The notes under the pieces are model-generated. The model was given only the letters and a program-made list of their open reading frames with translations. It had not been told where the DNA came from and made no database searches. 47,962 nucleotides of DNA from a virus: positions 1 to 47,962 of the IMG/VR virus record IMGVR_UViG_3300021959_010708; one strand, written 5' to 3'. Positions within the stretch are counted from its first letter, which is position 1, and each line of letters starts with the position of its first letter. The translations under genes and the position numbers were made by a program. Shown one piece after another: positions 1,633 to 46,720 of the stretch.

Positions 1633-2840
1633 TAATTTTTCTCCCATGTAAATTTGGTGACCATCTCTGTGTCGTTGATTGTGTCCTGCCCGTCTACTCC
1701 ATATTCAGAGACCGGTACAGGATAAAAACAACCCAAATCCAAACCTTCTGCAGACCATTCTATCTCATCCTGCAGTTGTATTGTTTCCTTAATCCTTTGT
1801 GAGTTGGGGTGATCCGGAAAATTGTTGACATATACATATGCCCACCCATTGTGTCCATCCATGCCGTTAAATTTTAGCATGTGATAATATTCTAAATCTT
1901 TGTAGTCCTTGCGTTGACCTTTGCCATCTAATCCTTTGTTTTTCCTCGCATGCTTCCACATGATCTCATGATCGTGCATTGCATCCAGCAAGAACTTGAC
2001 TGCGTCATGGAAAGTTTGGCCATTGCTATTGCTGTAATCATAAAGATCTTTACCATTCGATCTGTGTATTTCGGCCACGATTGTTAAAAGATTAAGACCC
2101 TTGGAATAGTAGTGCCAACTCCATGCTCCTCTTTGTGCTTCTCTCCACAATGCTCCATCATCATGCAAGTCGTCTATCGCGAAATGAAATATTTTTTGTC
2201 CTTGTTGAAAGTGTTTTGGATCATTGAAAGTGGCTCCGTACAGCACCCTGGTCAATTGAACATCATAGGTATGGTTCTGACATCCAAAAATGTCTCCACC
2301 TTTACTGCATCTTGACATGGTATATGTGTGATTTGCTTCCCTGTTGATGAATCCAAACAAGTTTTTTGAACGAGATCCCAACATTTCTAAAAATATTTCT
2401 TGCTGTGTGTCGTCCAAATGACCGTTTGATTGAAGTGCATGATAAGAAAAATACAAAGCAAATATGGCTGGTTGCAATCTACCTGCGTTGTCTATACCGT
2501 CACCACCACCTACACCATTGGCGAATTTTTTATCATTATATAATTCTAAAAGATATCTGATAAATTGATCTGCATTTTGTTTTGTTGGTTGGCTCCAATA
2601 AAAAGAAAGGTTCCTGATTGTGTTTCTATTGACTTTTGCATAATCAAAATCATTTTTTTGTCTCATTGTCACCCATTTGAAGTTTTTGTTTGGTGACAAC
2701 AAATGATCTAATTCCGAAACTTGGAATTGTGCGTTTTCAAGACACCTGGGATTGTGGGTTCCTTGTTTAGGAAAAATTTGGTATTCACCTGCATGCAGTG
2801 GTATGCATATCAATACAAAATATAAAATATATCTTATCAT
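1632..2840 (-). CDS. Secreted alginate-lyase-like protein (PL5-type alpha/alpha barrel)
   Basis: A 402-residue protein with a signal peptide (MIRYILYFVLICIPLHA, cleavage after about residue 17). It is predicted to cut uronic-acid polysaccharide by beta-elimination outside the cytoplasm. The family call rests on two blocks that line up with PL5 alginate lyases (AlgL/A1-III): CQNHTYDV (about 187-194), with the catalytic Asn-His, and REAQRGAWSWHYYSKGLN (about 233-250), with the Arg and Tyr, followed by IAE-type helices and NGKDLYDY. The start at 2840 is chosen because a TTGACA-N16-TATACT promoter ends six bases before that ATG; an upstream in-frame TTG lies inside the promoter. It follows the subtilase gene. 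Substrate could be alginate or another uronan of host capsule or matrix. It could also be a catalytically different relative. Confidence 0.72.
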   Translation of the reverse strand: MIRYILYFVLICIPLHAGEYQIFPKQGTHNPRCLENAQFQVSELDHLLSPNKNFKWVTMRQKNDFDYAKVNRNTIRNLSFYWSQPTKQNADQFIRYLLELYNDKKFANGVGGGDGIDNAGRLQPAIFALYFSYHALQSNGHLDDTQQEIFLEMLGSRSKNLFGFINREANHTYTMSRCSKGGDIFGCQNHTYDVQLTRVLYGATFNDPKHFQQGQKIFHFAIDDLHDDGALWREAQRGAWSWHYYSKGLNLLTIVAEIHRSNGKDLYDYSNSNGQTFHDAVKFLLDAMHDHEIMWKHARKNKGLDGKGQRKDYKDLEYYHMLKFNGMDGHNGWAYVYVNNFPDHPNSQRIKETIQLQDEIEWSAEGLDLGCFYPVPVSEYGVDGQDTINDTEMVTKFTWEKN

Positions 2841-2874
2841 CCTTTTAGTATATTGCAAATTTAAGTTTTGTCAA
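2841..2874 (-). promoter_or_regulatory. Sigma70-type promoter, leaderless geometry, for the alginate-lyase-like gene
   Basis: Minus strand: -35 TTGACA at 2869-2874, 16-base spacer, -10 TATACT at 2847-2852, then six bases and the ATG at 2838-2840. Transcription would start at or next to the A of the start codon. Confidence 0.8.
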
Positions 2875-2878
2875 TGTC

Positions 2879-5563
2879 TTACCAAACATATTTCACACCC
2901 AAATTCGCCGTCATCAAGTCATTATCTTCAACAAAAGTGTACCTCGAACTTGCAGAAAAATTCCATGATTCTGATAGTTGTTTGGAATACGCCAACTCCA
3001 CTACCTTAGGAACTTCGCTTGATTTTGCCGAAGCAGAACCACTTGTGAATGTGGTCGAGTTGTCGGTCCAATTATATGCTGTTGGAAGGGTATAATTGAT
3101 ATCACCGTCGACGACATTCAATTGTTCACCCATTTTGATAATGAATTGATTGTTAATGTTCTGATAGGTCATCCCCAAATACCATGATTGTGACTGTATG
3201 TTGGAAGATCCAGTGATGTATGAATCATTGGCAGATTTAACGTCCGAATATCCCCTAATAAAACCACTATTCCATGTCCATTTTTCCGTCACTGAGTAGT
3301 TCATGTCTGCCCCAACATAATTTGTGGTGCTGGACTTGATTGCGAATGATCCTTGGAAGGATGATCCCAACAGACTGCCGTCCTGTTTCATGCGTCCAAA
3401 ACTGTATGTGACGTCCAACTTGTCTGAGTGTTCTACTGATTTTCCATACAGCCAATCATCGCCGTTCTCACTCATTGCAAACAGCATGCCATCCCCTTGC
3501 AGTTTTGTCACTGGTTCATAGTTGACATATTGATTGCCCAGTGCTTGTTCGGTCAATTGAAAGGAAGTGAAATTGTCGTCATCGGCATAGTAATCTCTGT
3601 TATATGAATCCATCACAACTATGGATGAAACTGCGGATATGTTGTCCAACCCACTCATGGATGAGTCGCCCACGATGCCACCTGATATGGCACTGATGGC
3701 TCCGGAAGGTTGCACAGCAACTATGTCACCCTGTGGTTTGGTTGCTTCATTCAAATCCACCAATCCGTGTCCATACACAGCATCAACTCCTGGTGCTCCC
3801 AAGTCTCGGGCGGTTGATGTGATTAATCCTACCAGTTGTTCAGGTCTCAGTTGTGGCCATGCCTGTTTCAACACAGCGATAGATCCTGTCACATAAGGAG
3901 CCGCCATAGAAGTTCCACTCTTGGTGGTTGTGCCACCACCGTTGGCACTGGAAAGAATGTTCACACCTGGTGCCACCACAAAGAAATCTTTGGTGTTGAA
4001 AGTGTCATCACAGCCTGTGGCAACGCCGTCCGTGTACACCACATTGGAACAGATGTGTCCCGCCTTGTTGGACCATGAAGCAATTTGATTGTTGGAGTCG
4101 ACAGCACCCACGATCAACCATTGTCCATTAAGATATAAGTCACCATTCGAATCCACTCTGGTGGCGTAGTGCGAAGGCATCATGGGGTAATCCATCCCAT
4201 AGTTGCCTGCGGAGTTCACAATGATCATGCCATTGTCGATCGCTGTCTGATAATTCGACAGTGTGGCATCTGCAACACCATCCACGGAAGTTTGTCCGGG
4301 CAAGTAGTAAGCATCAGTGCTACCAATTTGTGTCAAGATTGTTGTCGATGTGTTAGCGGATAGGTTGGCCACAGCGGCGCCTTGATTGCTCAACACCACC
4401 ATGGCATCATCGAAATAGGAAAATGAACATCTGCCACTGCTCGAACACAATTTTATTGAAATAAGATCAGCATCATAGGCCACACCGTGTGTGCCTATGT
4501 CATTCTTTGCACCGGCGATGATTCCAGCCACATGCGTGCCGTGACCATTGTCATCTTCTGTGCCAGCAAATCTGTAATTGATGGTTGAAAATCTATCAGA
4601 ATCAAGATCTTCATGGTCAGTGTCTATGCCTGAATCTATCATGCCAACTATCACACCGTCTCCAGTCCAGCCTCTGGCATAGGCATATGAGGCTCCTATC
4701 TGATCCAATGCTGTGCTGTTGTACTCGTCAGTCAAAAATATTTCACCTACGGGCACAGTTGATGTTGCAGTCAATACTTCTTCCACATCGGCGCTTTCGC
4801 TCCAAGTGGTGACTGTTTCTGAAACAGGGTCTGAATCAGTTGATGTTGTTGTGCCATCCGACCAATTAAAAGTTGTCCTTGTGGCTCTGGTGGTTGTTGT
4901 GTGTGTTGGTACTTTGGTTGTGGTGGTCGTGGTTTGATATGTCTTGGTCACTGTGCCGTCCAGTGTAGATTCCACAACATTTCTTGTGGTGATCGCTGTG
5001 GTGATCACACTTTCGCCCACAACCACATCTGTGTTTGTAATTGTCTGAGAAATGCTTGTGCTGACAACAACTTTTTGGCCTTGTCCTTGATCTTTGTATA
5101 AATCTAATCTTTCTTGGCTTGATAGTGAATCGTCATACTCAACTATCTGTTGCACTGCTATGTATTCTGCTGACTGATCGTCGAACTGGCCTTGTTCAAC
5201 TGCCATAGACCATAAACTTTCCTTGCCATCATAATACCTCTTTTTGAATCCTTTCAATGCATAATAGCCTTGTTCCAAGGTCATACTTTGGCTGTCGATT
5301 ATTATGTTGACATTTGCCAGCGAACTCGGATCAAAGTTAGGATGCTGTTCCACCCATTGAAATGCTTGATAGGCTTCATTGATATCTATCTGTTTGTCGT
5401 CGGCGATGTCGATCAAAGCACTGACAAATGAATTAGAAACCACATCGGTGCTGATTGAAATATTTGTAGGATTTGGAACAGAAATAGAAACAGGTCCTCC
5501 CCCACTGCCTCCGCAGTTTGTTAAAAATAGTGATAATAATAGAATACTCACTAATCTTGTCAT
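2879..5563 (-). CDS. Lipid-anchored subtilisin-like serine protease with barrel-like C-terminus
   Basis: An 894-residue S8 peptidase. The N-terminus is a lipoprotein signal with lipobox LTNC (Cys17). A Thr-rich linker covers about residues 200-245. The catalytic triad is complete: Asp310 (GMIDSGIDTDHED), His341 (NGHGTHVAG) and Ser552 (SGTSMAAPYVTG). After residue 640 the sequence becomes an alternating polar/aromatic, Gly/Ser/Asn-rich segment with repeated Y/W-x-x strands, ending LGVKYVW, which resembles an outer-membrane beta barrel. This layout recalls SphB1/NalP-type subtilisin autotransporters, which are lipid-anchored and process surface proteins. A gene of this kind is unexpected in a phage. 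The promoter 5570-5597 fixes the start. It could trim host surface proteins or mature other phage envelope proteins; that is inference. Confidence 0.85.
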   Translation of the reverse strand: MTRLVSILLLSLFLTNCGGSGGGPVSISVPNPTNISISTDVVSNSFVSALIDIADDKQIDINEAYQAFQWVEQHPNFDPSSLANVNIIIDSQSMTLEQGYYALKGFKKRYYDGKESLWSMAVEQGQFDDQSAEYIAVQQIVEYDDSLSSQERLDLYKDQGQGQKVVVSTSISQTITNTDVVVGESVITTAITTRNVVESTLDGTVTKTYQTTTTTTKVPTHTTTTRATRTTFNWSDGTTTSTDSDPVSETVTTWSESADVEEVLTATSTVPVGEIFLTDEYNSTALDQIGASYAYARGWTGDGVIVGMIDSGIDTDHEDLDSDRFSTINYRFAGTEDDNGHGTHVAGIIAGAKNDIGTHGVAYDADLISIKLCSSSGRCSFSYFDDAMVVLSNQGAAVANLSANTSTTILTQIGSTDAYYLPGQTSVDGVADATLSNYQTAIDNGMIIVNSAGNYGMDYPMMPSHYATRVDSNGDLYLNGQWLIVGAVDSNNQIASWSNKAGHICSNVVYTDGVATGCDDTFNTKDFFVVAPGVNILSSANGGGTTTKSGTSMAAPYVTGSIAVLKQAWPQLRPEQLVGLITSTARDLGAPGVDAVYGHGLVDLNEATKPQGDIVAVQPSGAISAISGGIVGDSSMSGLDNISAVSSIVVMDSYNRDYYADDDNFTSFQLTEQALGNQYVNYEPVTKLQGDGMLFAMSENGDDWLYGKSVEHSDKLDVTYSFGRMKQDGSLLGSSFQGSFAIKSSTTNYVGADMNYSVTEKWTWNSGFIRGYSDVKSANDSYITGSSNIQSQSWYLGMTYQNINNQFIIKMGEQLNVVDGDINYTLPTAYNWTDNSTTFTSGSASAKSSEVPKVVELAYSKQLSESWNFSASSRYTFVEDNDLMTANLGVKYVW

Positions 5564-5597
5564 ACGTATATTGTAATACAGATTAGTGATCTGTCAA
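5564..5597 (-). promoter_or_regulatory. Sigma70-type promoter, leaderless geometry, for the subtilase gene
   Basis: Minus strand: -35 TTGACA at 5592-5597, 16-base spacer, -10 TACAAT at 5570-5575, six bases, then ATG at 5561-5563. No Shine-Dalgarno sequence fits between -10 and start. Confidence 0.8.
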
Positions 5598-9616: not shown

Positions 9617-10406
9617 CTTTTTCCCTTTCTGTTAAACTTGTCGGTATGCTTACATTTATATGGATGTACAAATGTCCTACTTGATTGCTGGAATTTACCA
9701 TTCCATGTTCGGGTATTCTCATGGTTGTGCCTGGCTGTGTTCCAGGAGGTATTTTTAATGTTATTTTTGATTTGTCCAAATGTGTGATCACTAACTTGGT
9801 TCCTAATATTGCGTCGAAACAATTAACAGTCTGTTCCATGTGCAGATCTAATTTACTTCTTTTGAAGACAGGATGCGGAGACACATACACTTTTATCAAA
9901 AGATCCCCGGCCGGCGCCTCCTTGATTTCACTGCTTCCTAATCCTTTGTATCGTATTGTTTGCCCCGAATCTATGCCACGTGGAATATCTACTGATATCT
10001 TTTTTGGTAGTTGATCCAAATTGAAAAGTTTTTTTGCGCCATGATAGGAGTCTTCAAGGCTTATTTCCAGATTGACTTGAATGTTTTTATTGCTGGGCCT
10101 TCTCGAGTATCTCCTTTGTTGCCTGAATCCGTCACCAAAGAATTGTGCAAACATATCCTGCATGTCAAAGGGGTCGCCCTGCGAAAAGTTGAAATTAAAT
10201 CCATCGCCGCCGAATCTTTTGGATGCTTCGAACTGCTGGCGTTTTTCAGCAGTTTTTATCTTATCGTAGGCTTCGTTGATTTCTTTGAATTTGTTTTCAT
10301 CTCCGCCACGGTCGGGATGATATTTGACAGCCAGTTTCCTGAATGCTTGTTTGATGTCTTGGTCAGATGCAGATTGGTCAACGCCTAATACCGTGTAAGG
10401 ATCCAT
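9582..10406 (-). CDS. dnaJ: DnaJ/CbpA-type J-domain co-chaperone
   Basis: A 274-residue class B J protein. The J domain occupies about residues 1-65, with the HPD tripeptide in KYHPDRGGDENKF, which stimulates Hsp70 ATPase. A Gly/Phe-rich linker (FGGDGFNFNFSQGDPF) follows, then the two beta-barrel client-binding domains (NKNIQVNLEISLEDSY onward). The zinc-finger domain of DnaJ proper is absent, as in CbpA. No phage Hsp70 is seen here, so it presumably recruits host DnaK. The start at 10406 is preferred over the ATG at 10412: the promoter -10 ends six bases before 10406, matching other leaderless genes. It is first in the dnaJ-def-clpA run. Confidence 0.92.
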   Translation of the reverse strand: MDPYTVLGVDQSASDQDIKQAFRKLAVKYHPDRGGDENKFKEINEAYDKIKTAEKRQQFEASKRFGGDGFNFNFSQGDPFDMQDMFAQFFGDGFRQQRRYSRRPSNKNIQVNLEISLEDSYHGAKKLFNLDQLPKKISVDIPRGIDSGQTIRYKGLGSSEIKEAPAGDLLIKVYVSPHPVFKRSKLDLHMEQTVNCFDAILGTKLVITHLDKSKITLKIPPGTQPGTTMRIPEHGMVNSSNQVGHLYIHINVSIPTSLTEREKDDIRRISETYS

Positions 10407-10440
10407 ATCCATAGTATATTATATAATGTTGATTTGTCAA
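10407..10440 (-). promoter_or_regulatory. Sigma70-type promoter, leaderless geometry, for dnaJ-def-clpA
   Basis: Minus strand: -35 TTGACA at 10435-10440, 16-base spacer, -10 TATACT at 10413-10418, six bases, ATG at 10404-10406. This decides between two in-frame ATGs. Confidence 0.8.
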
Positions 10441-10442
10441 AT

Positions 10443-11011: not shown

Positions 11012-11012
11012 T

Positions 11013-16858: not shown

Positions 16859-17777
16859 TGCGTATCCTTGCTAATTTGATAAGAACTGCTGACAAATTGA
16901 TTTCTGCTTCTGCTACAAATGAATGATCCACAATACCTTGTTTGATAACAAGTGTGGCCTCATCCTGTTGATCCTCTGTGTCGCCAAATATTTCAATGTT
17001 GTCGTACATCCAACGATAGATGTCTTCCATCTCTTCTGGGCGTGCCTGTGAACACAATAATTTTCTTGCTTCTGTGATCTTGCCCTGTTTGAACAGTTCA
17101 ACCATCTCTATTCTGTAATCTTGTTCACCCACATCTGCCACATTTGGTGCTTGTAGTTTGGCATCCGCAGAATTCATTTGCAGTGTGTTGATGCATTTTC
17201 TTAGATCAGGATACGTTGCCTTGACGTATGTGTCCAGCGTGTCCAAATCAAACTCAACGCCTTCTTCCACCAATATCTCCGCCGCACGAGCAGTGAACTC
17301 TGTCTTGTCTATCTTTTCGATGTGGAAGCCTTGGCATCTCGAGTGCAGTGCAGGAATCACTCTGTTGGGATAGTTGCAAGTGAGTATGAAACGAGCAGAT
17401 TGATGATACATCTCCATCACACCTCTCAATGCCGCTTGTCCGTTGGGTGAAATGTAATCCGCCTCATCCAACAGCACAACTTTGAATTCGCCGAATGGCA
17501 TGGTTTGCACAAAGTTTGTGATTTTATCTCTAATCACGTCCACAGAGTTTTCTCTTGAAGCATTTATCTCAAGTATGTCTGTGCCGATCACTTCCAACAA
17601 GTTCAGCAGTATCTTTGCCAGCGTGGTCTTGCCCACACCCGGAGCACCCGAAAATAATAGATGTGGAATTGATTTTGATTTGACCCACTGCTCTACTTGT
17701 TTTTTCTGTGCTTCATCACGAAACACATATCCCTGCAGTGTGTTAGGACGATGTTTTTCTACCCAAAGTGTGTTCAT
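16845..17777 (-). CDS. 44: Sliding-clamp loader ATPase subunit (T4 gp44-like, RFC small-subunit family)
   Basis: A 310-residue AAA+ protein that loads the DNA polymerase clamp. The N-terminus LWVEKHRPNTLQGYVF is the RFC box II. Walker A is FSGAPGVGKTTLAK, Walker B VVLLDEADYIS, and sensor/SRC-like elements RFILTCNYPNRVIPALHSRC complete the family signature. Length agrees with T4 gp44 (319 aa). In T4 four gp44 and one gp62 form the loader; gp45 and gp62 are not visible in this window. A TATAAT box lies six bases before the ATG, giving the leaderless geometry, though its -35 (TTGTGT) is weak. Confidence 0.93.
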   Translation of the reverse strand: MNTLWVEKHRPNTLQGYVFRDEAQKKQVEQWVKSKSIPHLLFSGAPGVGKTTLAKILLNLLEVIGTDILEINASRENSVDVIRDKITNFVQTMPFGEFKVVLLDEADYISPNGQAALRGVMEMYHQSARFILTCNYPNRVIPALHSRCQGFHIEKIDKTEFTARAAEILVEEGVEFDLDTLDTYVKATYPDLRKCINTLQMNSADAKLQAPNVADVGEQDYRIEMVELFKQGKITEARKLLCSQARPEEMEDIYRWMYDNIEIFGDTEDQQDEATLVIKQGIVDHSFVAEAEINLSAVLIKLARIRNGSN

Positions 17778-17812
17778 GTTGTTATTATACTATAAAATTT
17801 TGGATAACACAA
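17778..17812 (-). promoter_or_regulatory. Sigma70-type promoter with weak -35, leaderless geometry, for the gp44-like gene
   Basis: Minus strand: -10 TATAAT at 17784-17789, six bases before the ATG at 17775-17777; best -35 is TTGTGT at 17807-17812 with a 17-base spacer. Confidence 0.6.
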
Positions 17813-25228: not shown

Positions 25229-26296
25229 TTATTCTACTGTGCTATAACGATAGTTTTGGCGTTTGGCAAAGTCGCCACACTTTTTAAAGCACTCTGGATT
25301 GTGGAACTTGGCGCCTTTGATCCAGGACTTATATAATAGTTCTTTGTAGTATGGTGTTTTGAGAATCTCATCCAACGAGTTGTGCATTAGGCTGTTCCAT
25401 GTCGACCCGTACTCTTCATCTATTTGCTTGAGTGTTGGTTCGTTGTCGAAATGGTAGTCTGTTGCAAACCAACAGCAAGGCCAAACCTTGCCACTCCAAT
25501 CCACGAACACTTCTTTCTTGTGATACATGAGACAAAATATGGAATCTGCTTTGTCCTGTTCAGTGATGTTTTCTGGTTGCGTCCATTTGCTGACAGTCTT
25601 GGTCTCGGGATGCTCGTGTTTTTCGCTTGTGGTAGGATTGACTATAAATTTCTCTGTGACAATTTTGCCATCTACTTTCTTTTTGATGTAAGAAGTCCAT
25701 GGTGCGATGTTTCTCACGTTCTGTCTCAGCATGAGTGGAATCTTCAAACTGTCCGCCAGTTCCTTTGCCTGTGGTATGCTCTTCTCATTGTGAGCGAACA
25801 CCAGGTACTGCCACTCGCCTATGCCGCCGTTGTGCATGTATGCGGTCATGTTCTCTACTATCTTGTCCCAGTCCACATTCACGCGATAAAGATGGTTAGT
25901 ATCCTCCCACCCATCCACTGAGAATTTGACCTGCAATGATTGTGTGCGGGCACTTAGTTTGCCCAGCCTCTCGAATGTTTGCACGGTGTTGGCTCCACCA
26001 TTGGTGAAGATTTCTATGGTGGCATGGTTGTCTATGAGGTACTCGCAGATGTCTGCTATGTGCCTATTCATGAATGGTTCATCCACGGTGCCGCCGAGGG
26101 TGATGTGTTTATCTCGGATTATGTCAGGAGTGAATATTTTTTGCACTGTGGGAAGATCCCACTCCATCAGCTTGTCCGCCAGATAAGGATGTGTTTCCCC
26201 TTTGTGCGTCCTCGCACATCCAGGACACCTCGAATTACACTTGTTGGTGATTTCAAAATGAATGTTTTGCAGTTTATCGACAGAAATGTCCAGCAT
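25229..26296 (-). CDS. Radical SAM/SPASM-type protein (2)
   Basis: A 355-residue enzyme with the core motif NKCNSRCPGC (CxxxCxxC, about residues 16-25), and LGGTVDEPF in the position of the SAM-binding GGE. C-terminal cysteines VFVDWSGKVWPCCWF and NPECFKKCGDF look like SPASM/twitch auxiliary-cluster ligands. It is set between virion genes but has its own leaderless sigma70-type promoter, so it is probably expressed earlier. It is more diverged than the other two radical SAM proteins and has its auxiliary Cys at the C-terminal end. The substrate could be a peptide or a sugar; unknown. The ATG at 26296 is chosen from the promoter spacing over an adjacent TTG. Confidence 0.87.
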   Translation of the reverse strand: MLDISVDKLQNIHFEITNKCNSRCPGCARTHKGETHPYLADKLMEWDLPTVQKIFTPDIIRDKHITLGGTVDEPFMNRHIADICEYLIDNHATIEIFTNGGANTVQTFERLGKLSARTQSLQVKFSVDGWEDTNHLYRVNVDWDKIVENMTAYMHNGGIGEWQYLVFAHNEKSIPQAKELADSLKIPLMLRQNVRNIAPWTSYIKKKVDGKIVTEKFIVNPTTSEKHEHPETKTVSKWTQPENITEQDKADSIFCLMYHKKEVFVDWSGKVWPCCWFATDYHFDNEPTLKQIDEEYGSTWNSLMHNSLDEILKTPYYKELLYKSWIKGAKFHNPECFKKCGDFAKRQNYRYSTVE

Positions 26297-26331
26297 CAAG
26301 ATATTATAACAGAGTCAGTGGGGTTTTTCAA
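26297..26331 (-). promoter_or_regulatory. Sigma70-type promoter, leaderless geometry, for radical SAM gene 2
   Basis: Minus strand: -35 TTGAAA at 26326-26331, 17-base spacer, -10 TATAAT at 26303-26308, six bases, ATG at 26294-26296. The -35 lies in the loop of the preceding terminator hairpin. Confidence 0.72.
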
Positions 26332-30196: not shown

Positions 30197-30373
30197 CTAC
30201 TTCTTCTTAGGTCGTCCTCGACCTTTTTTCTTAGTCGTTTTCTTTGTTGTTGTTTTCTTAGTCGTTTTCTTTTTGGTGGTTGGTGCTTCTACAGTAGTAG
30301 ATTGGGCAGTCGCAGCCGTTGATGCTGTGGCTTCCTTGTGTCCACCGAATAACCATTTTACTAACCATATCAT
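30197..30373 (-). CDS. Small lysine-rich AT-hook peptide (58 aa)
   Basis: A 58-codon frame from ATG at 30373 to TAG at 30197. The N-terminus MIWLVKWLFGGHKE is hydrophobic, the middle is Ala/Thr-rich, and the end is a Lys/Thr run finishing KKKGRGRPKKK. The GRGRP core is an AT-hook, which binds the minor groove of AT-rich DNA. The combination suggests a DNA-binding peptide with an amphipathic, possibly membrane-touching, N-terminus. It has a strong sigma70-type promoter and an AAGAGGAG ribosome site, so it should be well expressed. It leads the SOD/Fe-S operon. Confidence 0.75.
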   Translation of the reverse strand: MIWLVKWLFGGHKEATASTAATAQSTTVEAPTTKKKTTKKTTTKKTTKKKGRGRPKKK

Positions 30374-30399
30374 TGTTGTGGTCTCCTCTTTATTTTGTT

Positions 30400-30428
30400 A
30401 TTATACTTATTTTTGCCATTTGTGTCAA
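30400..30428 (-). promoter_or_regulatory. Sigma70-type promoter of the AT-hook/SOD/Fe-S operon
   Basis: Minus strand: -35 TTGACA at 30423-30428, 17-base spacer, -10 TATAAT at 30400-30405; then a 26-base interval with AGAGGAG before the ATG at 30373. A leadered counterpart of the leaderless promoters. Confidence 0.8.
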
Positions 30429-31460
30429 TCACCACACAGGCGATCCCACAGACACCAATTGGTATTCTGTCGCCAGCAGTGTTGATGCAAGGTTTTTTGC
30501 CTTGGATTCGCATTGGATGTCAAACAGTTCGCCGAATGGTCGTACCCACTCATTGGTTTTATGATGCCAATAAAAATCGGAGTGTGCTCGTATGGTGGCT
30601 TTGTTTTCACCATTCGCAAACAACCAATCTCTGTCTAACAATTTGTTTGCATCTACTTTGTCTTTAAGTATTTCTCTCGGTTGTGAGTAGTGCATCACAG
30701 GACGCACACCACGCCATGAGTCTATGACTCTCTTGATCCTATCATCTGTGTGGGTTATCCATTCGCCTGTGTTCACCCAATGATGATGGATGTCGAAAAC
30801 CAATGCCACGTGTTTTTCAAGTTCGAGTATGTCAGACAATCCCCATTTCATTTCTTCGTTCTCTATGGTGATGCAATTCCTTGCTTCTGGTGAAAGTCGT
30901 GGCAACACATCTATGATGCCCTGTGGGCCACGTGCGCCTGCTATGTGTACATTGATCTTGAAGTCTTGGAAGGTCTTACCGTATCCCATCCAACGGGCCA
31001 TGTTGACATGATATTCGAATTCATCTATGGATCGTTCTATGACATCATCCGACTCCGATGCCAGCACTGTGAACTGTCCGGGATGGAATGAAACCCTAAC
31101 ACCGAGTTGCCTTGCTGTTTCGCCAACTTCCGCAAAGTGTTTCTCCAAATAGTTTATCACGTCTGGTTTTGACCAGAAGTAACGCCACGTGGCTTCGGTT
31201 GCAACCGGAAGAATAGGTGAACTCAAACGACACATCCTCAGTGGTTCAGGCAGTGCGCCTGTGTATTTTATTAGTTCGTGAATAGATGAAATGTTGTGTT
31301 GCATGAGCATCCAAAGTTTTTCTTCTGCTTCATCGCGATGTTCGTTCAACCATCTCACAGTCGTTGCTTTACAGTTTAAAGGAGACTCTGCTTCTTTCAA
31401 CAATTTGGGTTTTAAACTACGATCTGAATGAAGATATTTACAACAGAAGCCAAGACGCAT
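30429..31460 (-). CDS. uvsE: UV damage endonuclease (UvdE/UVDE)
   Basis: A 343-residue TIM-barrel nuclease that nicks 5' of UV photoproducts and other lesions. Family blocks: MRLGFCCKYL at the start; ISSIHELIKYTGALPEPLRMCRLSS; RVSFHPGQFTVL; NVHIAGARGPQG; ITIENEEMKWG; and LVFDIHHHWVNTGEW, which together supply the His, Glu and Asp metal ligands. Length agrees with bacterial UvsE (about 300-330). In surface seawater this would repair sunlight damage to phage DNA. The leaderless promoter at 31467-31494 fixes the start. Confidence 0.95.
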   Translation of the reverse strand: MRLGFCCKYLHSDRSLKPKLLKEAESPLNCKATTVRWLNEHRDEAEEKLWMLMQHNISSIHELIKYTGALPEPLRMCRLSSPILPVATEATWRYFWSKPDVINYLEKHFAEVGETARQLGVRVSFHPGQFTVLASESDDVIERSIDEFEYHVNMARWMGYGKTFQDFKINVHIAGARGPQGIIDVLPRLSPEARNCITIENEEMKWGLSDILELEKHVALVFDIHHHWVNTGEWITHTDDRIKRVIDSWRGVRPVMHYSQPREILKDKVDANKLLDRDWLFANGENKATIRAHSDFYWHHKTNEWVRPFGELFDIQCESKAKNLASTLLATEYQLVSVGSPVW

Positions 31461-31494
31461 AATTGTATTGTACTGTATTTTAAGATTTTGTCAA
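31461..31494 (-). promoter_or_regulatory. Sigma70-type promoter, leaderless geometry, for the UV endonuclease gene
   Basis: Minus strand: -35 TTGACA at 31489-31494, 16-base spacer, -10 TACAAT at 31467-31472, six bases, ATG at 31458-31460. The -35 overlaps the end of the carbamoyltransferase gene. Confidence 0.8.
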
Positions 31495-34306: not shown

Positions 34307-34820
34307 CAATTGCATCCTTGTTGATCTCCACTACTCTCGCAGGTGGATACCAATCTGAACGATTGAATTTCATCAATATGAAAGATCTATAGTGAGGTCC
34401 TTCATTGACGACCACTTTGTTTACAACGATGTAACCACCCATGTCCAACTCATCTATAATCGCCTGTGACAATTTTTGAGTCAATTGGGTAGTGTTACCG
34501 TTCACTACAGATCCGGAATCTTCTATGTATCTTTTGAAGTCTCCATTGATATAGTTCTGTAGTTTATCCGCAATCATGACCTTGGCGTCATGGATGCCTT
34601 TGTCGATCGAGAACTGCATGTCCTGACTTTGACCTGTGGCAACACCATAAACCCATGATTCGTCATCCATTGGATAATCAAAGAACCATTCAGGAACTTC
34701 ACTGCCACCACGCAGTTTCACCGTATCAACATCTACTCCTTTGTTGATGTTCTTGTTAAAAGGTCCTGATGAACAAGCACCAAGCATCAACATGAGTAGT
34801 ATTGCTGTTATATGTTTCAT
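34272..34820 (-). CDS. LPP20-family-like outer-membrane lipoprotein
   Basis: A 182-residue lipoprotein with lipobox LGAC (Cys15). The mature part has VPEWFFDYPMDDESWVYGVA, the LPP20 signature (P-W-f...Y.vG.A), and SIDKGIHDAKVMIADKLQNYI, the following A.A...L helix. LPP20-type proteins are often encoded next to CsgG-like pores and DUF4384 proteins. A leaderless promoter at 34827-34854 fixes the start, and the DUF4384-like gene begins inside its 3' end. It probably resides on the inner face of the outer membrane. A phage-borne LPP20 protein is unusual and fits the curlin-repeat gene at the right edge. Confidence 0.78.
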   Translation of the reverse strand: MKHITAILLMLMLGACSSGPFNKNINKGVDVDTVKLRGGSEVPEWFFDYPMDDESWVYGVATGQSQDMQFSIDKGIHDAKVMIADKLQNYINGDFKRYIEDSGSVVNGNTTQLTQKLSQAIIDELDMGGYIVVNKVVVNEGPHYRSFILMKFNRSDWYPPARVVEINKDAIDETFAQSEIIE

Positions 34821-34854
34821 GCTTTTATTATACTACAGAACGATGCAGTGTCAA
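34821..34854 (-). promoter_or_regulatory. Sigma70-type promoter, leaderless geometry, for the LPP20/DUF4384 pair
   Basis: Minus strand: -35 TTGACA at 34849-34854, 16-base spacer, -10 TATAAT at 34827-34832, six bases, ATG at 34818-34820. Textbook consensus at both boxes. Confidence 0.87.
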
Positions 34855-35160: not shown

Positions 35161-35561
35161 ACTTTCTTACCTGCTGTTTTGATGTCGGCCTTGCCCACCA
35201 CCATGTAAGGGCCTTTGTTGTAGGCCGGCATGATCGAGTATTGTTTGCTGATCTCTAATCTTTCTTGTGTGTCCTTCCAACTGCGATTGCTTTTTGCGAA
35301 CATCTTGTTGGGAGTCGGTAAATCCTGTGGGTTAGACTTGTAGTATGGAGTATTTCTCGGTTCAGAATAATTTGTATGCACTGAACTGTCAAAGATCGCC
35401 ATGTCTCTTTTGTTGTGTTTCTTGTCAGGGTCAACCCCCAATGATCTAAGATATTGTTTGTAATCTTCCTGTGCTTGCCTGTCCTTGGCTGTGAGACCTT
35501 TGGTCTTACGTTTTTTGGTTGAGTTCATACTAAGGTATGGTCCTACAAGATGCATAGTCAT
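35157..35561 (-). CDS. Basic hypothetical protein (134 aa)
   Basis: A 134-residue basic, proline/asparagine-rich protein (STKKRKTKGLTAKDRQAQEDYKQYLR...SYNK) that looks largely unfolded, with no membrane segment. Residues such as HTNYSEPRNTPYY and PNKMFAKSNRSWKD are reminiscent of conserved proteins in marine T4-like phages, but no function is known to me. The start is fixed by a promoter -10 six bases upstream. It is coupled to the secreted protein gene downstream. Confidence 0.65.
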   Translation of the reverse strand: MTMHLVGPYLSMNSTKKRKTKGLTAKDRQAQEDYKQYLRSLGVDPDKKHNKRDMAIFDSSVHTNYSEPRNTPYYKSNPQDLPTPNKMFAKSNRSWKDTQERLEISKQYSIMPAYNKGPYMVVGKADIKTAGKKV

Positions 35562-35596
35562 ACAGTTATTATAAAACGGAGGGTGTCATCTGTCAA
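35562..35596 (-). promoter_or_regulatory. Sigma70-type promoter, leaderless geometry, for 35157-35561
   Basis: Minus strand: -35 TTGACA at 35591-35596, 17-base spacer, -10 TATAAT at 35568-35573, six bases, ATG at 35559-35561. Back to back with the plus-strand late motif at 35602. Confidence 0.82.
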
Positions 35597-39107: not shown

Positions 39108-40417
39108 ATTTTTTCACCAATCTCAAATCCTCTGAATGATTTAAATCTTGGGAATCTCAGTGAGTATGTGCCGTCTTGATTTTGGGTGATGGCATCTGCT
39201 CTCACTTCTACCATTTGTCCGATAATACTATCACGATGAGTCCAAAAGTCATCACGATGCCCGTCGCTGAAACCACTGCCAACATTGACATGAATATCTT
39301 TGCCATCATCTGTGCCTTCACAGACAAACGCCCCGAGTCTGCCTTCGTTCCTGCCCGTGCCCGCTTCGACATCTTTCACCTCCAGTGTGACTTCTATGAA
39401 TGGTTTGGCCTTCAGCATGTGATGTGATCTTTTACACTCGTAGGGAGCATCCACATCCTTGATCATCACACCCTCAAAGCCTTGCTCAACTGCTTGTTTG
39501 TTTATTTTTAAATATCGCTTGTAGCCTTCAGGTGTGTCCAGATTGACTCTGTGTTTCTCTAAAGGAAACAGATGATCAAACTCTTTGTCTATAAACAGTG
39601 CTCTCACAAACGCATCTCTATCAGCACACCCAAGTATGCTTTTGCCTTTGGTGAATTCGTGTTGTGCAATCATATCAAACACAGCAAACTTGGCATCAGT
39701 GGCTTCCACGTTGTCTTTGCGATGCACCTGTTTCATCAGTGCTTGGAAACTTTTGCTGACCATTTCGCCATCCAGTATCATGGGCACTTCAAAGCCTGGC
39801 AGTATCTTTTCTCTAATTTCATCTTCCACATGACCAAAGTTGTGCAACTGTTTGCCGTTCCTGGTGTACATGGCCACTGTGTCTTTGTCTGGATCAAAGA
39901 ATGCCAATACCCTTACACCATCCAACTTGTAGTCAATAAACTTTTCTCCATGCATCTTGTTGGCATGGTTGGCTGAATCATGTGCCAGCATGACATCAAA
40001 AGTAGGAACCATATATTTTTCTAATTGGCACTTTTTGGCCACCGAGTTGATGGTCTTTTCAGAAACACCACATCTCAGATCTTTTATCAAAATCCTGCGA
40101 TACCAGTCATTCCATTCTTCGCAGGTGGCCTGTGCCATGCGTTCTGCCACAAGGTCACGAGCGGCATTGCCTGTGACTGATCTATAATTGAGTTGATGCT
40201 GTAAGTCCCAAAAGGATTCTCTGTCCAATCCTGGACCATCCTGTGAGGCTGTGTCCACTTTTTGGATGTTGAACACATATAATTTGTCTAATGCTATTTG
40301 GACACCTTCGAAGAATTCGTCATTGCCTGCCAGCATTTCGCGGGCAATCACACCTTCTTTGAACAGTCGTGAGTTGTCAGATTCTAATTCTTGTATAATT
40401 TTGTATGGCTTCATCAT
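39104..40417 (-). CDS. 30: ATP-dependent DNA ligase (T4 gp30-like)
   Basis: A 437-residue ligase that seals nicks in replicated DNA. Motif I with the adenylated Lys is FIDYKLDGVRVLAFF (KLDG, about residue 163). Motif III/IIIa is MILDGEMVSKSFQALM, motif IV GFEGVMIKDVDAPYE, motif V MLKAKPFIEVTLEV. The C-terminal OB domain follows (GRNEGRLGAFVCEG, VNVGSGFSD). Length is near T4 gp30 (487 aa). It starts an operon containing IF-1 and the QueC-like gene. The start is fixed by a perfect leaderless sigma70-type promoter. Confidence 0.95.
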   Translation of the reverse strand: MMKPYKIIQELESDNSRLFKEGVIAREMLAGNDEFFEGVQIALDKLYVFNIQKVDTASQDGPGLDRESFWDLQHQLNYRSVTGNAARDLVAERMAQATCEEWNDWYRRILIKDLRCGVSEKTINSVAKKCQLEKYMVPTFDVMLAHDSANHANKMHGEKFIDYKLDGVRVLAFFDPDKDTVAMYTRNGKQLHNFGHVEDEIREKILPGFEVPMILDGEMVSKSFQALMKQVHRKDNVEATDAKFAVFDMIAQHEFTKGKSILGCADRDAFVRALFIDKEFDHLFPLEKHRVNLDTPEGYKRYLKINKQAVEQGFEGVMIKDVDAPYECKRSHHMLKAKPFIEVTLEVKDVEAGTGRNEGRLGAFVCEGTDDGKDIHVNVGSGFSDGHRDDFWTHRDSIIGQMVEVRADAITQNQDGTYSLRFPRFKSFRGFEIGEKI

Positions 40418-40451
40418 ACACTTATTATATAATATTTGGAAAAAGTGTCAA
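40418..40451 (-). promoter_or_regulatory. Sigma70-type promoter, leaderless geometry, for the DNA ligase operon
   Basis: Minus strand: -35 TTGACA at 40446-40451, 16-base spacer, -10 TATAAT at 40424-40429, six bases, ATG at 40415-40417. The -35 overlaps the foot of the porin terminator. Confidence 0.87.
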
Positions 40452-40487: not shown

Positions 40488-41276
40488 TTAGAATGCTACA
40501 GAAACACCCATTGCTGGTGTTACTTCTTTAGAGTCTAAATTGTAGTTTGCTTCCACATAGTAACCAAGATCTTTCCAAGTTGATTTGTAGCCTGCACCTA
40601 CGTTCTTTGACCAGTCACCCTCGTCACCGTCGACATATGCTGAAACAGGACCCATTGCTACGATTGACTCGTAAGCAACTTCATTTGTCAATGTTTCGTC
40701 ATGTGTTACAACTGTGGACAAGTTTACTGATTCGTTCAAGTCAAATGCTACAGAACCTGCAAAGACGTTGTTGTCATTTGAGATTGTGTGATTAACTGCC
40801 GCTCCAACTGAGAATTTATCAACTGATGTTGAAAATTTCGCTTGGATTGTTGAGAAATCAGAAATGTCTGTGTCTGTGTCTGTAAACAAACCTCTCACTG
40901 ATAATGCACCGAAGTTACCGATGATGCTCTCACCTGCATCACTTGGGTTAGCAAGTGTGTTTGCACCCACAGCTTCAAGACCGCCACCGATAAAGATGTC
41001 GCCCTGGTCACCGTATGATACAGACGCAGTGTCTGTGATGTTTGCACCGATCTGATATTCATCCATGATGAACTGATCTGATGAGTTTGTTTTTGCTTTG
41101 ATGTAACCGAAAGCAACTCCTGAGTCGCCGTTCACATCAAATTTGATTGATTCAGTTGAGATGTAATCATTACTTGCGTTTTCTGTAATGTCCACTTCCA
41201 CAGTACCGGTAATAGTGGCAGCTTGTGTAACACCTGCAAAACCTAAAGCAATCATAAGTGCTATTAGTTTCTTCAT
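40488..41276 (-). CDS. Gram-negative-type porin
   Basis: A 262-residue outer-membrane barrel. The signal peptide is MKKLIALMIALGFAGVTQA with cleavage before ATITG. The mature part consists of alternating amphipathic strands (ITGTVEVDIT, FGYIKAKTNS, ASVSYGDQGDIFIG, FSVGAAVNHTI, GAGYKSTWKD, YYVEANYNLD) and ends GVSVAF, with the C-terminal Phe recognised by the BAM machinery. Acidic overall. It has its own strong leadered sigma70-type promoter, GAGGAG ribosome site and terminator, so it is an independent unit. Phage porins can replace host porins to block superinfection, or alter nutrient uptake. Confidence 0.88.
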   Translation of the reverse strand: MKKLIALMIALGFAGVTQAATITGTVEVDITENASNDYISTESIKFDVNGDSGVAFGYIKAKTNSSDQFIMDEYQIGANITDTASVSYGDQGDIFIGGGLEAVGANTLANPSDAGESIIGNFGALSVRGLFTDTDTDISDFSTIQAKFSTSVDKFSVGAAVNHTISNDNNVFAGSVAFDLNESVNLSTVVTHDETLTNEVAYESIVAMGPVSAYVDGDEGDWSKNVGAGYKSTWKDLGYYVEANYNLDSKEVTPAMGVSVAF

Positions 41277-41458
41277 TTATTATAGTCTCCTCTTTGGTCT
41301 ATTATATAATAGTTGTACACCAAATAGCAACCACTGTGTTGTGGTGGCCACGAAGCATACCGCTTTATATAGTCTCGGCAAGTGTGAATTAAGTGTGTAC
41401 TGAATGCAGATTTGTGGATAACTGATCAAAGTTTTGTTACAGAAAGATTAAATTTTTA
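41277..41458. other. Intergenic region with porin promoter and a consensus DnaA box
   Basis: About 180 bases without a gene. Besides the porin promoter it contains TGTGGATAA at 41413-41421 (TTATCCACA on the minus strand), a perfect match to the DnaA box consensus. The hairpin ACCAC/GTGGT (41330-41334 with 41341-41345) lies just upstream of the -35. A single box may be chance. Confidence 0.4.
41301..41330 (-). promoter_or_regulatory. Sigma70-type promoter of the porin gene
   Basis: Minus strand: -35 TTGCTA at 41325-41330, 18-base spacer, -10 TATAAT at 41301-41306 within the palindrome ATTATATAAT; then a roughly 20-base leader with GAGGAG before the ATG at 41276. Confidence 0.7.
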
Positions 41459-42943: not shown

Positions 42944-43549
42944 TTATGCAGATTCTACATCTGATCTGTGTGTGATGATTTTATCGATAAGTCCGAATTC
43001 AAGTGCTTCTTGTGGCGACATGAATTTGTCACGTTCCATGGCTTGATTGATAACTTCAATGTCTTGACCGGTGTGGTCAGCATACATTTGATTGAGTTTT
43101 TTCTTGATCTTTATTATCTCTTCTGCCTGGATCTGAATGTCTGTGGCCTGTCCTGAAGCACCACCCGAAGGTTGATGGATCATGATCCTTGAATTTTTTA
43201 GGGCATATCGCTTGCCTTTGGTTCCTGCCATGGCCAGCAGTGATCCTGCTGAACAAGCTTGTCCTATCACGAGAGTTGATATGTCACACTTGATGAATTG
43301 CATGGTATCATACATGGCCAATCCTGCTGTGACCAATCCACCCGGTGAATTGATGTACATGTAGATGTCCTTGTCGGGGGCCTGTGATTCTAAGAACAGC
43401 AGTTGTGCCGACACGATTGAAGACACCTGTTCGTTGATGCCTCCGGTTAAAAATATAATTCTTTCTTTTAAAAGACGTGAAAAAATATCATAACTTCTTT
43501 CACCCTTTGATGTCTGTTCTATTACAACAGGTACTAAACTCATATCCAT
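42944..43549 (-). CDS. clpP: ATP-dependent Clp protease proteolytic subunit
   Basis: A 201-residue ClpP serine protease. Catalytic Ser lies in [14 protein letters not shown], His in [13 protein letters not shown], and Asp in [12 protein letters not shown], giving the full triad. [10 protein letters not shown] is the conserved oxyanion strand, and the N-terminal axial-loop segment [23 protein letters not shown] is present. It would form the double heptamer that degrades proteins fed by ClpA (phage clpA at 6898-9120). Three in-frame ATGs are near the start; that at 43549 is chosen because the -10 box ends six bases before it. Confidence 0.95.
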
Positions 43550-43584
43550 GCTCATATTATACTACTCCTCTGTGATTTCGTCAA
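43550..43584 (-). promoter_or_regulatory. Sigma70-type promoter, leaderless geometry, for clpP
   Basis: Minus strand: -35 TTGACG at 43579-43584, 17-base spacer, -10 TATAAT at 43556-43561, six bases, ATG at 43547-43549. Confidence 0.75.
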
Positions 43585-44057: not shown

Positions 44058-44070
44058 ACACAATTTTCAT

Positions 44071-44256
44071 TTACTTGGATGAGGCCGCTGCCTTCTCCTC
44101 AAGTATCTCTTTTCTTCTTGCCTTGATGAGTTTACCTAATTCCTGCAGAGCTTTTCTGGCCCTTGTCGCAGATGCTTTCACACCCTTGTCAGTAAACTTT
44201 TCGTTTTCTTCGATGTAAGCCTCGAATTGGCTTTTGATTTCATCATTTGTTGACAT
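44071..44256 (-). CDS. Histone H1-like (Hc1-type) DNA-binding protein (61 aa)
   Basis: A 61-residue protein: acidic helix first (TNDEIKSQFEAYIEENEKF), then the basic helix FTDKGVKASATRARKALQEL and IKARRKEILEEKAAASSK. The pattern K-G-x-K-A-(A/S)-x-x-R-x-R-K-x-x-x-x-L...K-x-x-R-K-E resembles the core of chlamydial histone-like Hc1. It probably binds DNA and may compact phage or host DNA. The ATG at 44256 is chosen by its AGGAG ribosome site; the upstream frame runs through the promoter. Confidence 0.75.
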   Translation of the reverse strand: MSTNDEIKSQFEAYIEENEKFTDKGVKASATRARKALQELGKLIKARRKEILEEKAAASSK

Positions 44257-44280
44257 ATTAATATATCTCCTTGTGTTATT

Positions 44281-44310
44281 ATTATATGCTCTGTAGGTGT
44301 GTGTGTGCAA
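44281..44310 (-). promoter_or_regulatory. Sigma70-type promoter of the Hc1-like gene
   Basis: Minus strand: -35 TTGCAC at 44305-44310, 18-base spacer, -10 TATAAT at 44281-44286, then a roughly 24-base leader with AAGGAG before the ATG at 44256. Confidence 0.7.
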
Positions 44311-44319
44311 GAGAAATGA

Positions 44320-46166: not shown

Positions 46167-46170
46167 AAAA

Positions 46171-46686
46171 CTATTTAAGTAGGATTGAGTAGGCCTTTTG
46201 CACAGCCTGAGCTTGGGCGACTGCATCTGTGAGTGCGTTGTGTTTGCCCTCTATTCTCACACTAACATCGGCAAGGTCAAACAGTGTGCGAGTGTCTCTC
46301 ACTTCCCAGAACTTCCATGTCACTGCCTGTTGAAATGATCGACAAATGTCTTCTATGATAACAACATCAAACACAGAGCCATGGCTCCATACATTAGAAG
46401 TGCCCAAACCAAATGTGTATAATTTTTTCATTGCATCCTTGAGATCAATACGATCATCGCCTTCACCGAAAGCATCTTCCTGTATCTGTGGATCCTGCTG
46501 GCCCCACCAAGCAACTGTGTCGTCGTTGATAACCCTGCCATATGACTCCTGTGATTCCAGTTTGATTCTTTCGTAGAATGTCGAATGAACATCTTTGCCG
46601 TGGGGATCGAATAAGCATGCGCCTATCGTCAGCACCGCCGCGTTGGGAGTGGTTGCCAGTGTTTCAAGGTCTATCATCAAATGCAT
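46171..46686 (-). CDS. DEDD-type 3'-5' exonuclease (T4 DexA-like)
   Basis: A 171-residue exonuclease. Exo I is LMIDLETLATTP (DxE), Exo II is NVWSHGSVFDVVIIEDI with its Asp, and Exo III is GKHNALTDAVAQAQAV (HxxxxD, DEDDh type). It resembles T4 DexA and related short phage exonucleases that trim DNA or RNA 3' ends. The ATG at 46686 is fixed by the leaderless promoter, not the in-frame ATG 15 bases earlier, which lies in the promoter. It overlaps no gene and is followed by radical SAM gene 3. Confidence 0.9.
   Translation of the reverse strand: MHLMIDLETLATTPNAAVLTIGACLFDPHGKDVHSTFYERIKLESQESYGRVINDDTVAWWGQQDPQIQEDAFGEGDDRIDLKDAMKKLYTFGLGTSNVWSHGSVFDVVIIEDICRSFQQAVTWKFWEVRDTRTLFDLADVSVRIEGKHNALTDAVAQAQAVQKAYSILLK
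46172..46178 (-). promoter_or_regulatory. T4-type late promoter motif (leaderless spacing) for radical SAM gene 3
   Basis: Minus strand TTAAATA, five bases before the ATG at 46164-46166; overlaps the exonuclease stop codon. Confidence 0.55.
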
Positions 46687-46720
46687 ACAAACAGTATACA
46701 CTAAGATAGATCAATGTCAA
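46687..46720 (-). promoter_or_regulatory. Sigma70-type promoter, leaderless geometry, for the exonuclease gene
   Basis: Minus strand: -35 TTGACA at 46715-46720, 16-base spacer, -10 TATACT at 46693-46698, six bases, ATG at 46684-46686. Confidence 0.85.

What the first reader, a model, noticed from the sequence alone, without database searches (positions are those of the whole stretch)
2838..46720. A family of sigma70-type promoters placed to make leaderless mRNAs
Ten minus-strand genes share the layout TTGACA-like, 16 or 17 bases, TATAAT-like, exactly six bases, ATG: starts at 2840, 5563, 10406, 26296, 31460, 34820, 35561, 40417, 43549 and 46686. An eleventh (17777) has the same -10 spacing but a poor -35. 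Transcription normally begins about seven bases after the -10, that is on the start codon, leaving no room for a ribosome site. The products are diverse (ligase, DnaJ, ClpP, UV endonuclease, radical SAM, LPP20). Other genes here do have leaders with AGGAG (30373, 41276, 44256), so the spacing is a chosen class, not an accident of poor annotation.
Basis: partly seen in the sequence, partly recalled or inferred. Interest (0 to 1): 0.9.

Follow-up and report, generated by a model that had tools for sequence, protein, structure and literature searches.

The report
Phage promoters making leaderless messenger RNAs
An uncultured T4-related phage and its close relatives place many of their standard bacterial promoters so close to the gene that the message should begin with the start codon itself and carry no ribosome-binding site, a layout known for a few phage genes but here used again and again along the genome.

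Summary
In the window, 10 of 26 strong sigma70-like minus-strand sites lie exactly 6 nt before an ATG that opens an ORF; simulations scaled to 26 sites expect 0.7 even without the ORF condition. The eleventh (17777) has a weak -35 but the spacing is kept in relatives.

The layout is shared. Among 1876 de-duplicated promoters from the window and relatives, ATG lies 5/6/7 nt after the -10 in 36/153/30 cases, against about 11 per distance. GTG and TTG show no peak. The base before ATG is a pyrimidine in 36/36 (5 nt) and 122/153 (6 nt), as expected if transcription starts on that A. Shine-Dalgarno matches are rare (11%, against 64% in leadered promoters). In UvdE orthologues the promoter moves with the start codon.

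The trait is uneven: clear in 7 of 7 close and 7 of 13 more distant records, absent in T4, S-PM2, SCTP-2, Atu_ph07, Vibrio 2.275 and Paride.

Best reading: host sigma70 polymerase makes 5'-AUG mRNAs, read without a Shine-Dalgarno site. No transcript start was measured; the host is unknown. Precedents exist, so this is a new variant of a known kind.

The parts
2838..2874 (-). promoter TTGACA-16-TATACT-6-ATG of gene 1632-2840 (alginate lyase-like, PF05426)
5561..5597 (-). promoter TTGACA-16-TACAAT-6-ATG of gene 2879-5563 (S8 subtilase)
   Evidence: same layout in the 64% identical relative
10404..10440 (-). promoter TTGACA-16-TATACT-6-ATG of gene 9582-10406 (DnaJ); a second overlapping site (-35 at 10447, TTGTCA-18-TATAAT-5-ATG) serves the in-frame ATG at 10412
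17775..17812 (-). TTGTGT-17-TATAAT-6-ATG of gene 16845-17777 (gp44-like clamp loader); weak -35 here, TAGACA in 6 of the 12 orthologue rows at 86% identity or more, 6-nt spacing in 10 of those 12
26294..26331 (-). promoter TTGAAA-17-TATAAT-6-ATG of gene 25229-26296 (radical SAM/SPASM)
31458..31494 (-). promoter TTGACA-16-TACAAT-6-ATG of gene 30429-31460 (UvdE UV endonuclease)
34818..34854 (-). promoter TTGACA-16-TATAAT-6-ATG of gene 34272-34820 (putative lipoprotein)
35559..35596 (-). promoter TTGACA-17-TATAAT-6-ATG of gene 35157-35561 (unknown)
40415..40451 (-). promoter TTGACA-16-TATAAT-6-ATG of gene 39104-40417 (ATP-dependent DNA ligase)
43547..43584 (-). promoter TTGACG-17-TATAAT-6-ATG of gene 42944-43549 (ClpP-like protease; PHROG's best label is head maturation protease)
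46684..46720 (-). promoter TTGACA-16-TATACT-6-ATG of gene 46171-46686 (exonuclease, Rv2179c-like)
30371..30428 (-). leadered comparator: TTGACA-17-TATAAT, 26 nt with AGAGGAG, ATG
41274..41330 (-). leadered comparator: TTGCTA-18-TATAAT, 24 nt with AGAGGAG, ATG
44254..44309 (-). leadered comparator: TGCACA-17-TATAAT, 24 nt with AAGGAG, ATG

Best explanation
These are sigma70-type promoters read by the host RNA polymerase. Their discriminator has the length that puts the transcription start on (or within one base of) the A of the ATG. The resulting mRNAs begin 5'-AUG with no leader and no Shine-Dalgarno site, and are translated by the 5'-AUG-dependent route that lets 70S ribosomes with initiator tRNA start on leaderless mRNA. 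In the pooled relatives this class stands beside a second class of about equal size with 20-35 nt leaders and Shine-Dalgarno sites. Shown by computation: the geometry, its enrichment, its conservation, the AUG restriction and the pyrimidine at -1. Inferred: the actual transcript ends, the polymerase, the translation route, the timing and any benefit.
For: Window: 10 of 26 strong minus-strand sites at exactly 6 nt against 0.7 expected. Records: highest short-range count at 6 in 14 of the 14 related records first fetched, d=6 Poisson P from 8e-13 to 6e-3 (G019 ties at 5 and 6; G001 overlaps the window and is not independent). Pooled 1876 de-duplicated promoters: ATG at 5/6/7 nt = 36/153/30 against 11.3 per distance at 8-19 nt; GTG 4 and TTG 7 at 6 nt, no peak. 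Pyrimidine before ATG 36/36, 122/153 and 20/30 at 5, 6 and 7 nt, against 53% of 340 ATGs at 20-35 nt. SD match of 4 or more: 11% against 64% (shuffled 16% and 34%). Orthologues: of 189 clustered starts 66 have a promoter at 5-7 nt, 39 at 15-39, 5 elsewhere, 79 none; in UvdE 34 of 54 rows are at 5 or 6 nt although the start codon lies at 0, -6, -9, -12 or -18 nt relative to the window's start. Controls without a peak: Paride, T4, S-PM2, SCTP-2, Atu_ph07, Vibrio 2.275. Promoter flanks are no more alike than random 50-mers (mean 0.26 in both).
Against: No transcript 5' end was measured. Six related records that had no strict pattern match, fetched later as a check, show no clear peak: 7 ATGs at 6 nt among 252 promoters, P 0.03 to 1.0 each. 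ClpP (43549) has AGGAG 9 nt before an in-frame ATG at 43555, so a read-through mRNA could use that; its two close orthologues lack that ATG. 123 of 189 orthologue starts have a leader, another distance or no promoter. At 7 nt only 20 of 30 have a pyrimidine at -1. Five of the 11 starts have another start codon upstream in frame. The host is unknown, so its ability to translate leaderless mRNA is untested.
Confidence: 0.86

Rival explanations
1. The sites are real promoters, but the proteins are mainly made from longer read-through transcripts that carry ordinary ribosome sites; the leaderless ends are by-products.
For: Gaps between genes are short and nearly all genes run in one direction, so read-through is plausible; ClpP at 43549 has AGGAG inside its spacer, 9 nt before an in-frame ATG.
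Against: The stretch before these ATGs is poor in SD matches (11%, below the 16% of shuffles); the fixed distance and the AUG restriction have no evident reason to exist if the leaderless end is not used.
Confidence: 0.09
2. A phage enzyme, not host sigma70, reads a motif that includes the start codon, like the TATG late promoters of phiKZ.
For: The base before ATG is T in 59%, so TATG is common; phiKZ late promoters have consensus TATG (passages of PMC4666361).
Against: -35 and -10 hexamers at sigma70 spacing are kept in orthologues; in phiKZ transcription starts on the G of TATG, which would cut the start codon from the mRNA.
Confidence: 0.03
3. Chance plus wrong start annotation.
For: Promoters lie near gene starts anyway, and six more distant relatives show no clear peak.
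Against: The single-distance peak and simulations in the window, six named control phages without a peak under the same method, and orthologue tracking.
Confidence: 0.01

Closest known systems
phiYS40 of Thermus thermophilus
   Same: A phage said to make most middle/late mRNAs without leaders (passages of the review PMC3594737).
   Different: Its host belongs to a group where leaderless genes are abundant (PMC3160421 passages: Deinococcus-Thermus mean 39.4%). The primary paper is not held, so promoter geometry was not compared.
PY54 cI/cro and lambda cI leaderless mRNAs
   Same: Phage promoters directly before AUG; in PY54 RACE gave mRNAs beginning with the AUG (PMC4488713 passages).
   Different: Single switch genes of temperate phages, not a set along the genome.
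Cluster O mycobacteriophage SigA-like promoters
   Different: Few promoters; mycobacterial hosts, where leaderless transcripts are common (listings).
TA-led (leaderless) genes of bacteria
   Same: TANNNT/TATAAT about 12 bp upstream of the start (PMC3160421 passages).
   Different: Cellular genes; in gamma-Proteobacteria reported mostly in Xanthomonadales and Legionellales (same passages).
Pseudomonas phage Paride / PA5oct group
   Same: Nearest named relatives by clamp loader (56% identity); TTGACA/TATAAT promoters.
   Different: d=6 in 1 of 213 promoters, 32 ATGs at 20-40 nt.
Xanthomonas phage XacN1
   Same: Cultured; d=6 in 8 and d=7 in 4 of 156 promoters, 10 of 12 with a pyrimidine at -1.
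   Different: Clamp loader only 41% identical; the class is a minority (82 ATGs at 20-40 nt).

Membership tests
Leaderless (TA-led) sigma70 genes | -10 box placed so that +1 would fall on the start codon | tested here: met
   sharp mode at 6 nt in the window and pooled relatives
Leaderless (TA-led) sigma70 genes | no Shine-Dalgarno site | tested here: met
   11% against 64% in leadered promoters; match of 3 or less between -15 and -5 in 11 of 11 window genes; 43549 has AGGAG further off, at -20 to -16
Leaderless (TA-led) sigma70 genes | start codon restricted to AUG (recalled for E. coli 5'-end initiation) | tested here: met
   no GTG or TTG peak at 5-7 nt
Leaderless (TA-led) sigma70 genes | measured transcript start on AUG | not testable with these tools
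   no transcript data
phiYS40-type leaderless expression of many phage genes | many phage genes leaderless | tested here: met
   as prediction only: 11 genes in 48 kb; 10 of 30 strong promoters in the window
phiYS40-type leaderless expression of many phage genes | host IF2 up and IF3 down in infection | not testable with these tools
   host unknown
lambda/PY54-type leaderless repressor | gene is a lysogeny switch repressor | tested here: not met
   9 of 11 products match other families: lyase, protease, DnaJ, clamp loader, radical SAM, UvdE, ligase, ClpP, exonuclease; 2 have no match
Leadered sigma70 promoters (as in Paride) | leader of about 20-40 nt with SD | tested here: not met
   not met by these 11; met by 30373, 41276, 44256
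phiKZ TATG late promoters | phage polymerase, start on G of TATG, no sigma70 hexamers (last point recalled) | tested here: not met
   -35 and -10 hexamers kept in orthologues; the polymerase itself was not tested

The most novel reading that the evidence does not exclude
These phages run a deliberate two-track expression programme: one set of genes on leaderless mRNAs, the rest on leadered ones. During infection they shift host initiation toward 5'-AUG mRNAs, for example through the ribosomal protein bS21 encoded by 15 of 33 related IMG/VR records, so that phage messages are read when Shine-Dalgarno-led initiation is limiting. Against a simple link: Paride also encodes bS21 and shows no leaderless class.
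Probability: 0.15. Interest if true: 0.87.

Novelty: new variant of a known kind. Interest (0 to 1): 0.64.

Why it matters
The leaderless phage mRNAs that I found in print are single switch genes, a few predicted promoters, or a phage of a host rich in leaderless genes. A group of T4-related phages in which the predicted leaderless class rivals the leadered class gives over two hundred natural candidate designs for 5'-AUG translation. Gene finders that lean on a Shine-Dalgarno site may miss or shorten such genes. It also makes testable whether phages use the 5' end of the mRNA to sort their messages or to escape control at the Shine-Dalgarno step.

Tried and rejected
Host search: alginate lyase gave no relative in genome contigs; the clamp loader gave one contig, labelled an archaeal MAG, which I take to be a misplaced phage contig; the S8 protease in plasmids gave only hits under 60% identity, none covering 80% of the query; alginate lyase in 'phages' gave none. 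No tRNA in the window. Host left open.

In the sampled loci 84 of 124 seeded ATGs open an ORF at 6 nt against 27 of 113 at 10 nt; among the other promoters ATGs at 6 nt number 14 of 629 (6-nt sample) and 9 of 519 (10-nt sample).

Mobile promoter cassette: rejected, flanks not alike. T4-like late motif TATAAATA: one minus-strand site in the window (47012), not at these genes. bS21 as the cause: not supported, Paride is a counterexample.

Mended on checking: the 14 related records first histogrammed were 14 of the 33 IMG/VR records, chosen for closeness and size, and 12 of them had a strict pattern match. I therefore fetched 60-80 kb of each of the six match-free records left; they show no clear peak, so the claim of breadth was narrowed. 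13 of the 33 were not fetched in full; all 13 had at least one strict match.

Rows dropped: promoters near the ends of pieces and duplicates (2022 distinct to 1876); orthologue hits whose alignment began after query residue 8 or that lacked 80 nt upstream.

In print: ten searches of the open-licence library showed no report of a sigma70 leaderless class spread over a T4-related phage genome; of the larger result sets only the top rows were seen (25 of 464, 30 of 137), and subscription papers are mostly not held. Only passages were read of PMC9723584, PMC7162821, PMC9031893, PMC5312081, PMC4666361, PMC3160421, PMC11845039, PMC7372960, PMC3594737, PMC4488713, PMC9693318 and PMC4351075; all other papers were seen as listings.
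Full report
WHAT WAS CHECKED. The window is a whole IMG/VR virus record of 47,962 bases, probably a fragment of a larger genome. Nearly all its genes are on the minus strand. It looks like a T4-related phage: gp44-like clamp loader (PHROG 168), baseplate gp9/10-like N-terminus, NolO-like carbamoyltransferase, ATP-dependent ligase. The nearest named phages by clamp loader are Pseudomonas jumbo phages of the PA5oct/Paride group, about 56% identical.

THE OBSERVATION. All eleven starts have the stated geometry. With a sigma70 weight matrix (E. coli frequencies, recalled), 26 minus-strand sites score at least 12; 10 of them have an ATG exactly 6 nt after the -10 that opens at least 50 codons. 150 first-order Markov sequences gave a mean of 4.6 sites, 0.13 ATGs at 6 nt and 0.007 with the ORF; scaled to 26 sites, 0.7 ATGs are expected. 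The eleventh, 17777, scores 10.6 because of its -35. Among the 12 clamp-loader rows at 86% identity or more, 10 keep the 6-nt spacing, 6 of them with TAGACA as -35, and 2 have no promoter. Of the 11 starts, 6 have no alternative start codon before the upstream in-frame stop. No downstream in-frame start within 40 codons has an SD match of 5 or more; 31460 has one and 40417 two with a match of 4. DnaJ (MDPYTVLGV), UvdE (MRLGFCC) and gp44 (MNTLWVEKHRP) begin as their families usually do (recalled; PHROG or Pfam matches from residue 1-3).

SPREAD. Distance histograms were made for 24 records and six more. The window and the 14 related records first fetched have their highest short-range count at 6 (G019 ties at 5 and 6); P for d=6 runs from 8e-13 to 6e-3. 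These 14 were picked from 33 IMG/VR relatives. The six relatives without a strict pattern match and not yet fetched, added as a check, give 2, 1, 1, 2, 0 and 1 ATGs at 6 nt among 51, 57, 36, 34, 45 and 29 promoters (P 0.06, 0.43, 0.10, 0.03, 1.0, 0.22). So the trait is clear in the window's close relatives (7 of 7: G001-G005, G007, G027; G001 overlaps the window) and in 7 of 13 more distant ones (G013, G019, G022, G023, G029, G030, G032, not G008, G009, G010, G014, G015, G018). Named phages: Paride 1 of 213, T4 0 of 78, S-PM2 1 of 68, SCTP-2 1 of 113, Atu_ph07 0 of 83, Vibrio 2.275 1 of 39: no peak. Phosso 2 of 19 is too few to judge. XacN1 has 8 of 156 at 6 nt and 4 at 7. Melnitz-3 has 1 of 65 at 6 and 4 at 7. 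Of SCTP-2, Phosso, Atu_ph07, Vibrio 2.275, Melnitz-3, S-PM2 and XacN1 only 100-300 kb were scanned.

SIGNS OF A TRANSCRIPT START ON AUG. The window, the 14 records and the 160 loci were pooled and duplicates removed (2022 to 1876 promoters); orthologous promoters less than about 84% alike still count apart. ATG occurs 36, 153 and 30 times at 5, 6 and 7 nt, against a mean of 11.3 over distances 8-19. GTG (4) and TTG (7) at 6 nt stay at their own background. A strict AUG requirement is what is known for 5'-end initiation in E. coli (recalled). The base before the ATG is a pyrimidine in 36 of 36 cases at 5 nt, 122 of 153 at 6 and 20 of 30 at 7, against 53% for 340 ATGs at 20-35 nt. sigma70 start sites favour pyrimidine at -1 and purine at +1 (recalled), so this is an independent sign that the A of AUG is +1. 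SD matches of at least 4 nt occur in 11% of the short class and 64% of the 20-35 nt class; shuffles give 16% and 34%. After subtracting background, the two classes are about equal (about 185 and 160; arithmetic).

ORTHOLOGUES. tblastn of the eleven proteins against all loci then held, clustered at 85% identity over -45 to +12, gives 189 starts: 66 with a promoter at 5-7 nt, 39 at 15-39, 5 at other distances, 79 with none (cut-off 10, best site within 39 nt; the start was taken as the ATG nearest the aligned position, without regard to promoters). The clearest case is UvdE: relative to the window's start the start codon lies at 0, -6, -9, -12 or -18 nt in different relatives, and in 34 of 54 rows the promoter lies 5 or 6 nt before it. 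The exonuclease is leaderless here and in G027 (L224), but in G007 (L183) it has no promoter nearby and an AAGGA-like site, so genes pass between the classes. Promoter flanks share no more identity than random sequence, so a copied cassette is unlikely and selection on spacing is the simpler reading.

WHICH GENES. In the window: alginate lyase-like, subtilase, DnaJ, clamp loader, radical SAM, UvdE, a putative lipoprotein, an unknown, ligase, ClpP-like, exonuclease. PHROG's best label for the ClpP-like protein is head maturation protease, Pfam's is Clp protease; its role is open. In relatives I scanned 20 of the 80 leaderless candidates listed, choosing longer ones. 8 of 20 fall in PHROG's DNA, RNA and nucleotide category (RNR small subunit, exonuclease, DNA polymerase part, HNH endonuclease, two primases, two DnaB helicases). 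Others are a methyltransferase, phosphoesterases, a phosphohydrolase, a deoxyribonucleotidase, an ABC-type protein, a glycosyl/methyltransferase-like protein, an endolysin and an unknown family; 2 had no match. None of the 20 matched a capsid or tail family. That fits early or middle expression by host polymerase, but the endolysin speaks for late genes too, and timing is inference.

MECHANISM. Most likely the host sigma70 holoenzyme starts on the A of AUG, and 70S ribosomes with initiator tRNA bind the 5' AUG. In 8 of 11 cases the promoter fits a gap of 34-70 nt between genes; in 3 (17777, 31460, 43549) the -35 lies inside the upstream ORF (arithmetic). Compactness may be one benefit; escape from competition at the SD step another. 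A change of the ribosome by phage bS21 is possible (15 of 33 IMG/VR relatives encode it), but Paride has bS21 and no leaderless class.

HOST. Not found. Leaderless genes in gamma-Proteobacteria are reported mostly in Xanthomonadales and Legionellales (PMC3160421 passages). XacN1, a Xanthomonas phage, is the only cultured phage in my set with a clear 6-nt class (P 5e-6). Phage use may follow host capacity, but that is one case.

KNOWN AND NEW. Leaderless phage mRNAs are known: phiYS40 middle/late genes (review passages), PY54 cI and cro by RACE, predicted cluster O mycobacteriophage promoters. The AR9 authors remark that phage transcripts are often leaderless. Huge phages with possible ribosomal protein S1 are reported to have few identifiable SD sites (PMC7162821 passages), with no mention of the word leaderless in that text. 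What I did not find in ten searches is a sigma70 leaderless class spread over a T4-related phage genome, AUG-only and co-moving with the start codon. I rate it a new variant of a known kind.

LIMITS. No RNA data; recalled weight matrix; relatives are fragments; ORF calls are mechanical; the pooled set leans towards records with pattern matches.

Noticed in passing
window 25107-25193 (-): Match to the freshwater-2 cis-regulatory RNA family (RF02980, 52.9 bits, over its gathering score of 49.9) at the start of the gene 24636-25109.
   Followed up: no
window 10404-10447 (-): dnaJ has two overlapping promoters, one 5 nt before the in-frame ATG at 10412 and one 6 nt before that at 10406, so two leaderless mRNAs differing by two codons are possible.
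   Followed up: partly
window 43547-43584 (-): The clpP-like gene has AGGAG inside its promoter spacer, 9 nt before an in-frame ATG at 43555; the two close orthologues lack this ATG.
   Followed up: partly
window 40450-40474 (-): A terminator-like hairpin ends inside the -35 of the ligase promoter.
   Followed up: no
records G008, G012, G013, G016, G017, G019, G021-G023, G027, G028, G030-G033 and Paride: Ribosomal protein bS21 is encoded in 16 of 34 records searched, 15 IMG/VR relatives and Paride.
   Followed up: partly
window 1632-5563 (-): An alginate lyase-like gene with no match in the named phages beside an S8 protease gene that has PHROG relatives; both have export-like N-termini (my reading).
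   Followed up: partly
L536-L541 (XacN1 first 120 kb): The 12 short-distance ATGs found in XacN1 lie in the first 120 of the 300 kb scanned.
   Followed up: no
Viral contigs sample: A general sample of viral contigs also shows a small excess of ATG at 6 nt (9 of 519 promoters, neighbours 2 and 4), so leaderless promoters may be more common in environmental viruses than assumed.
   Followed up: no
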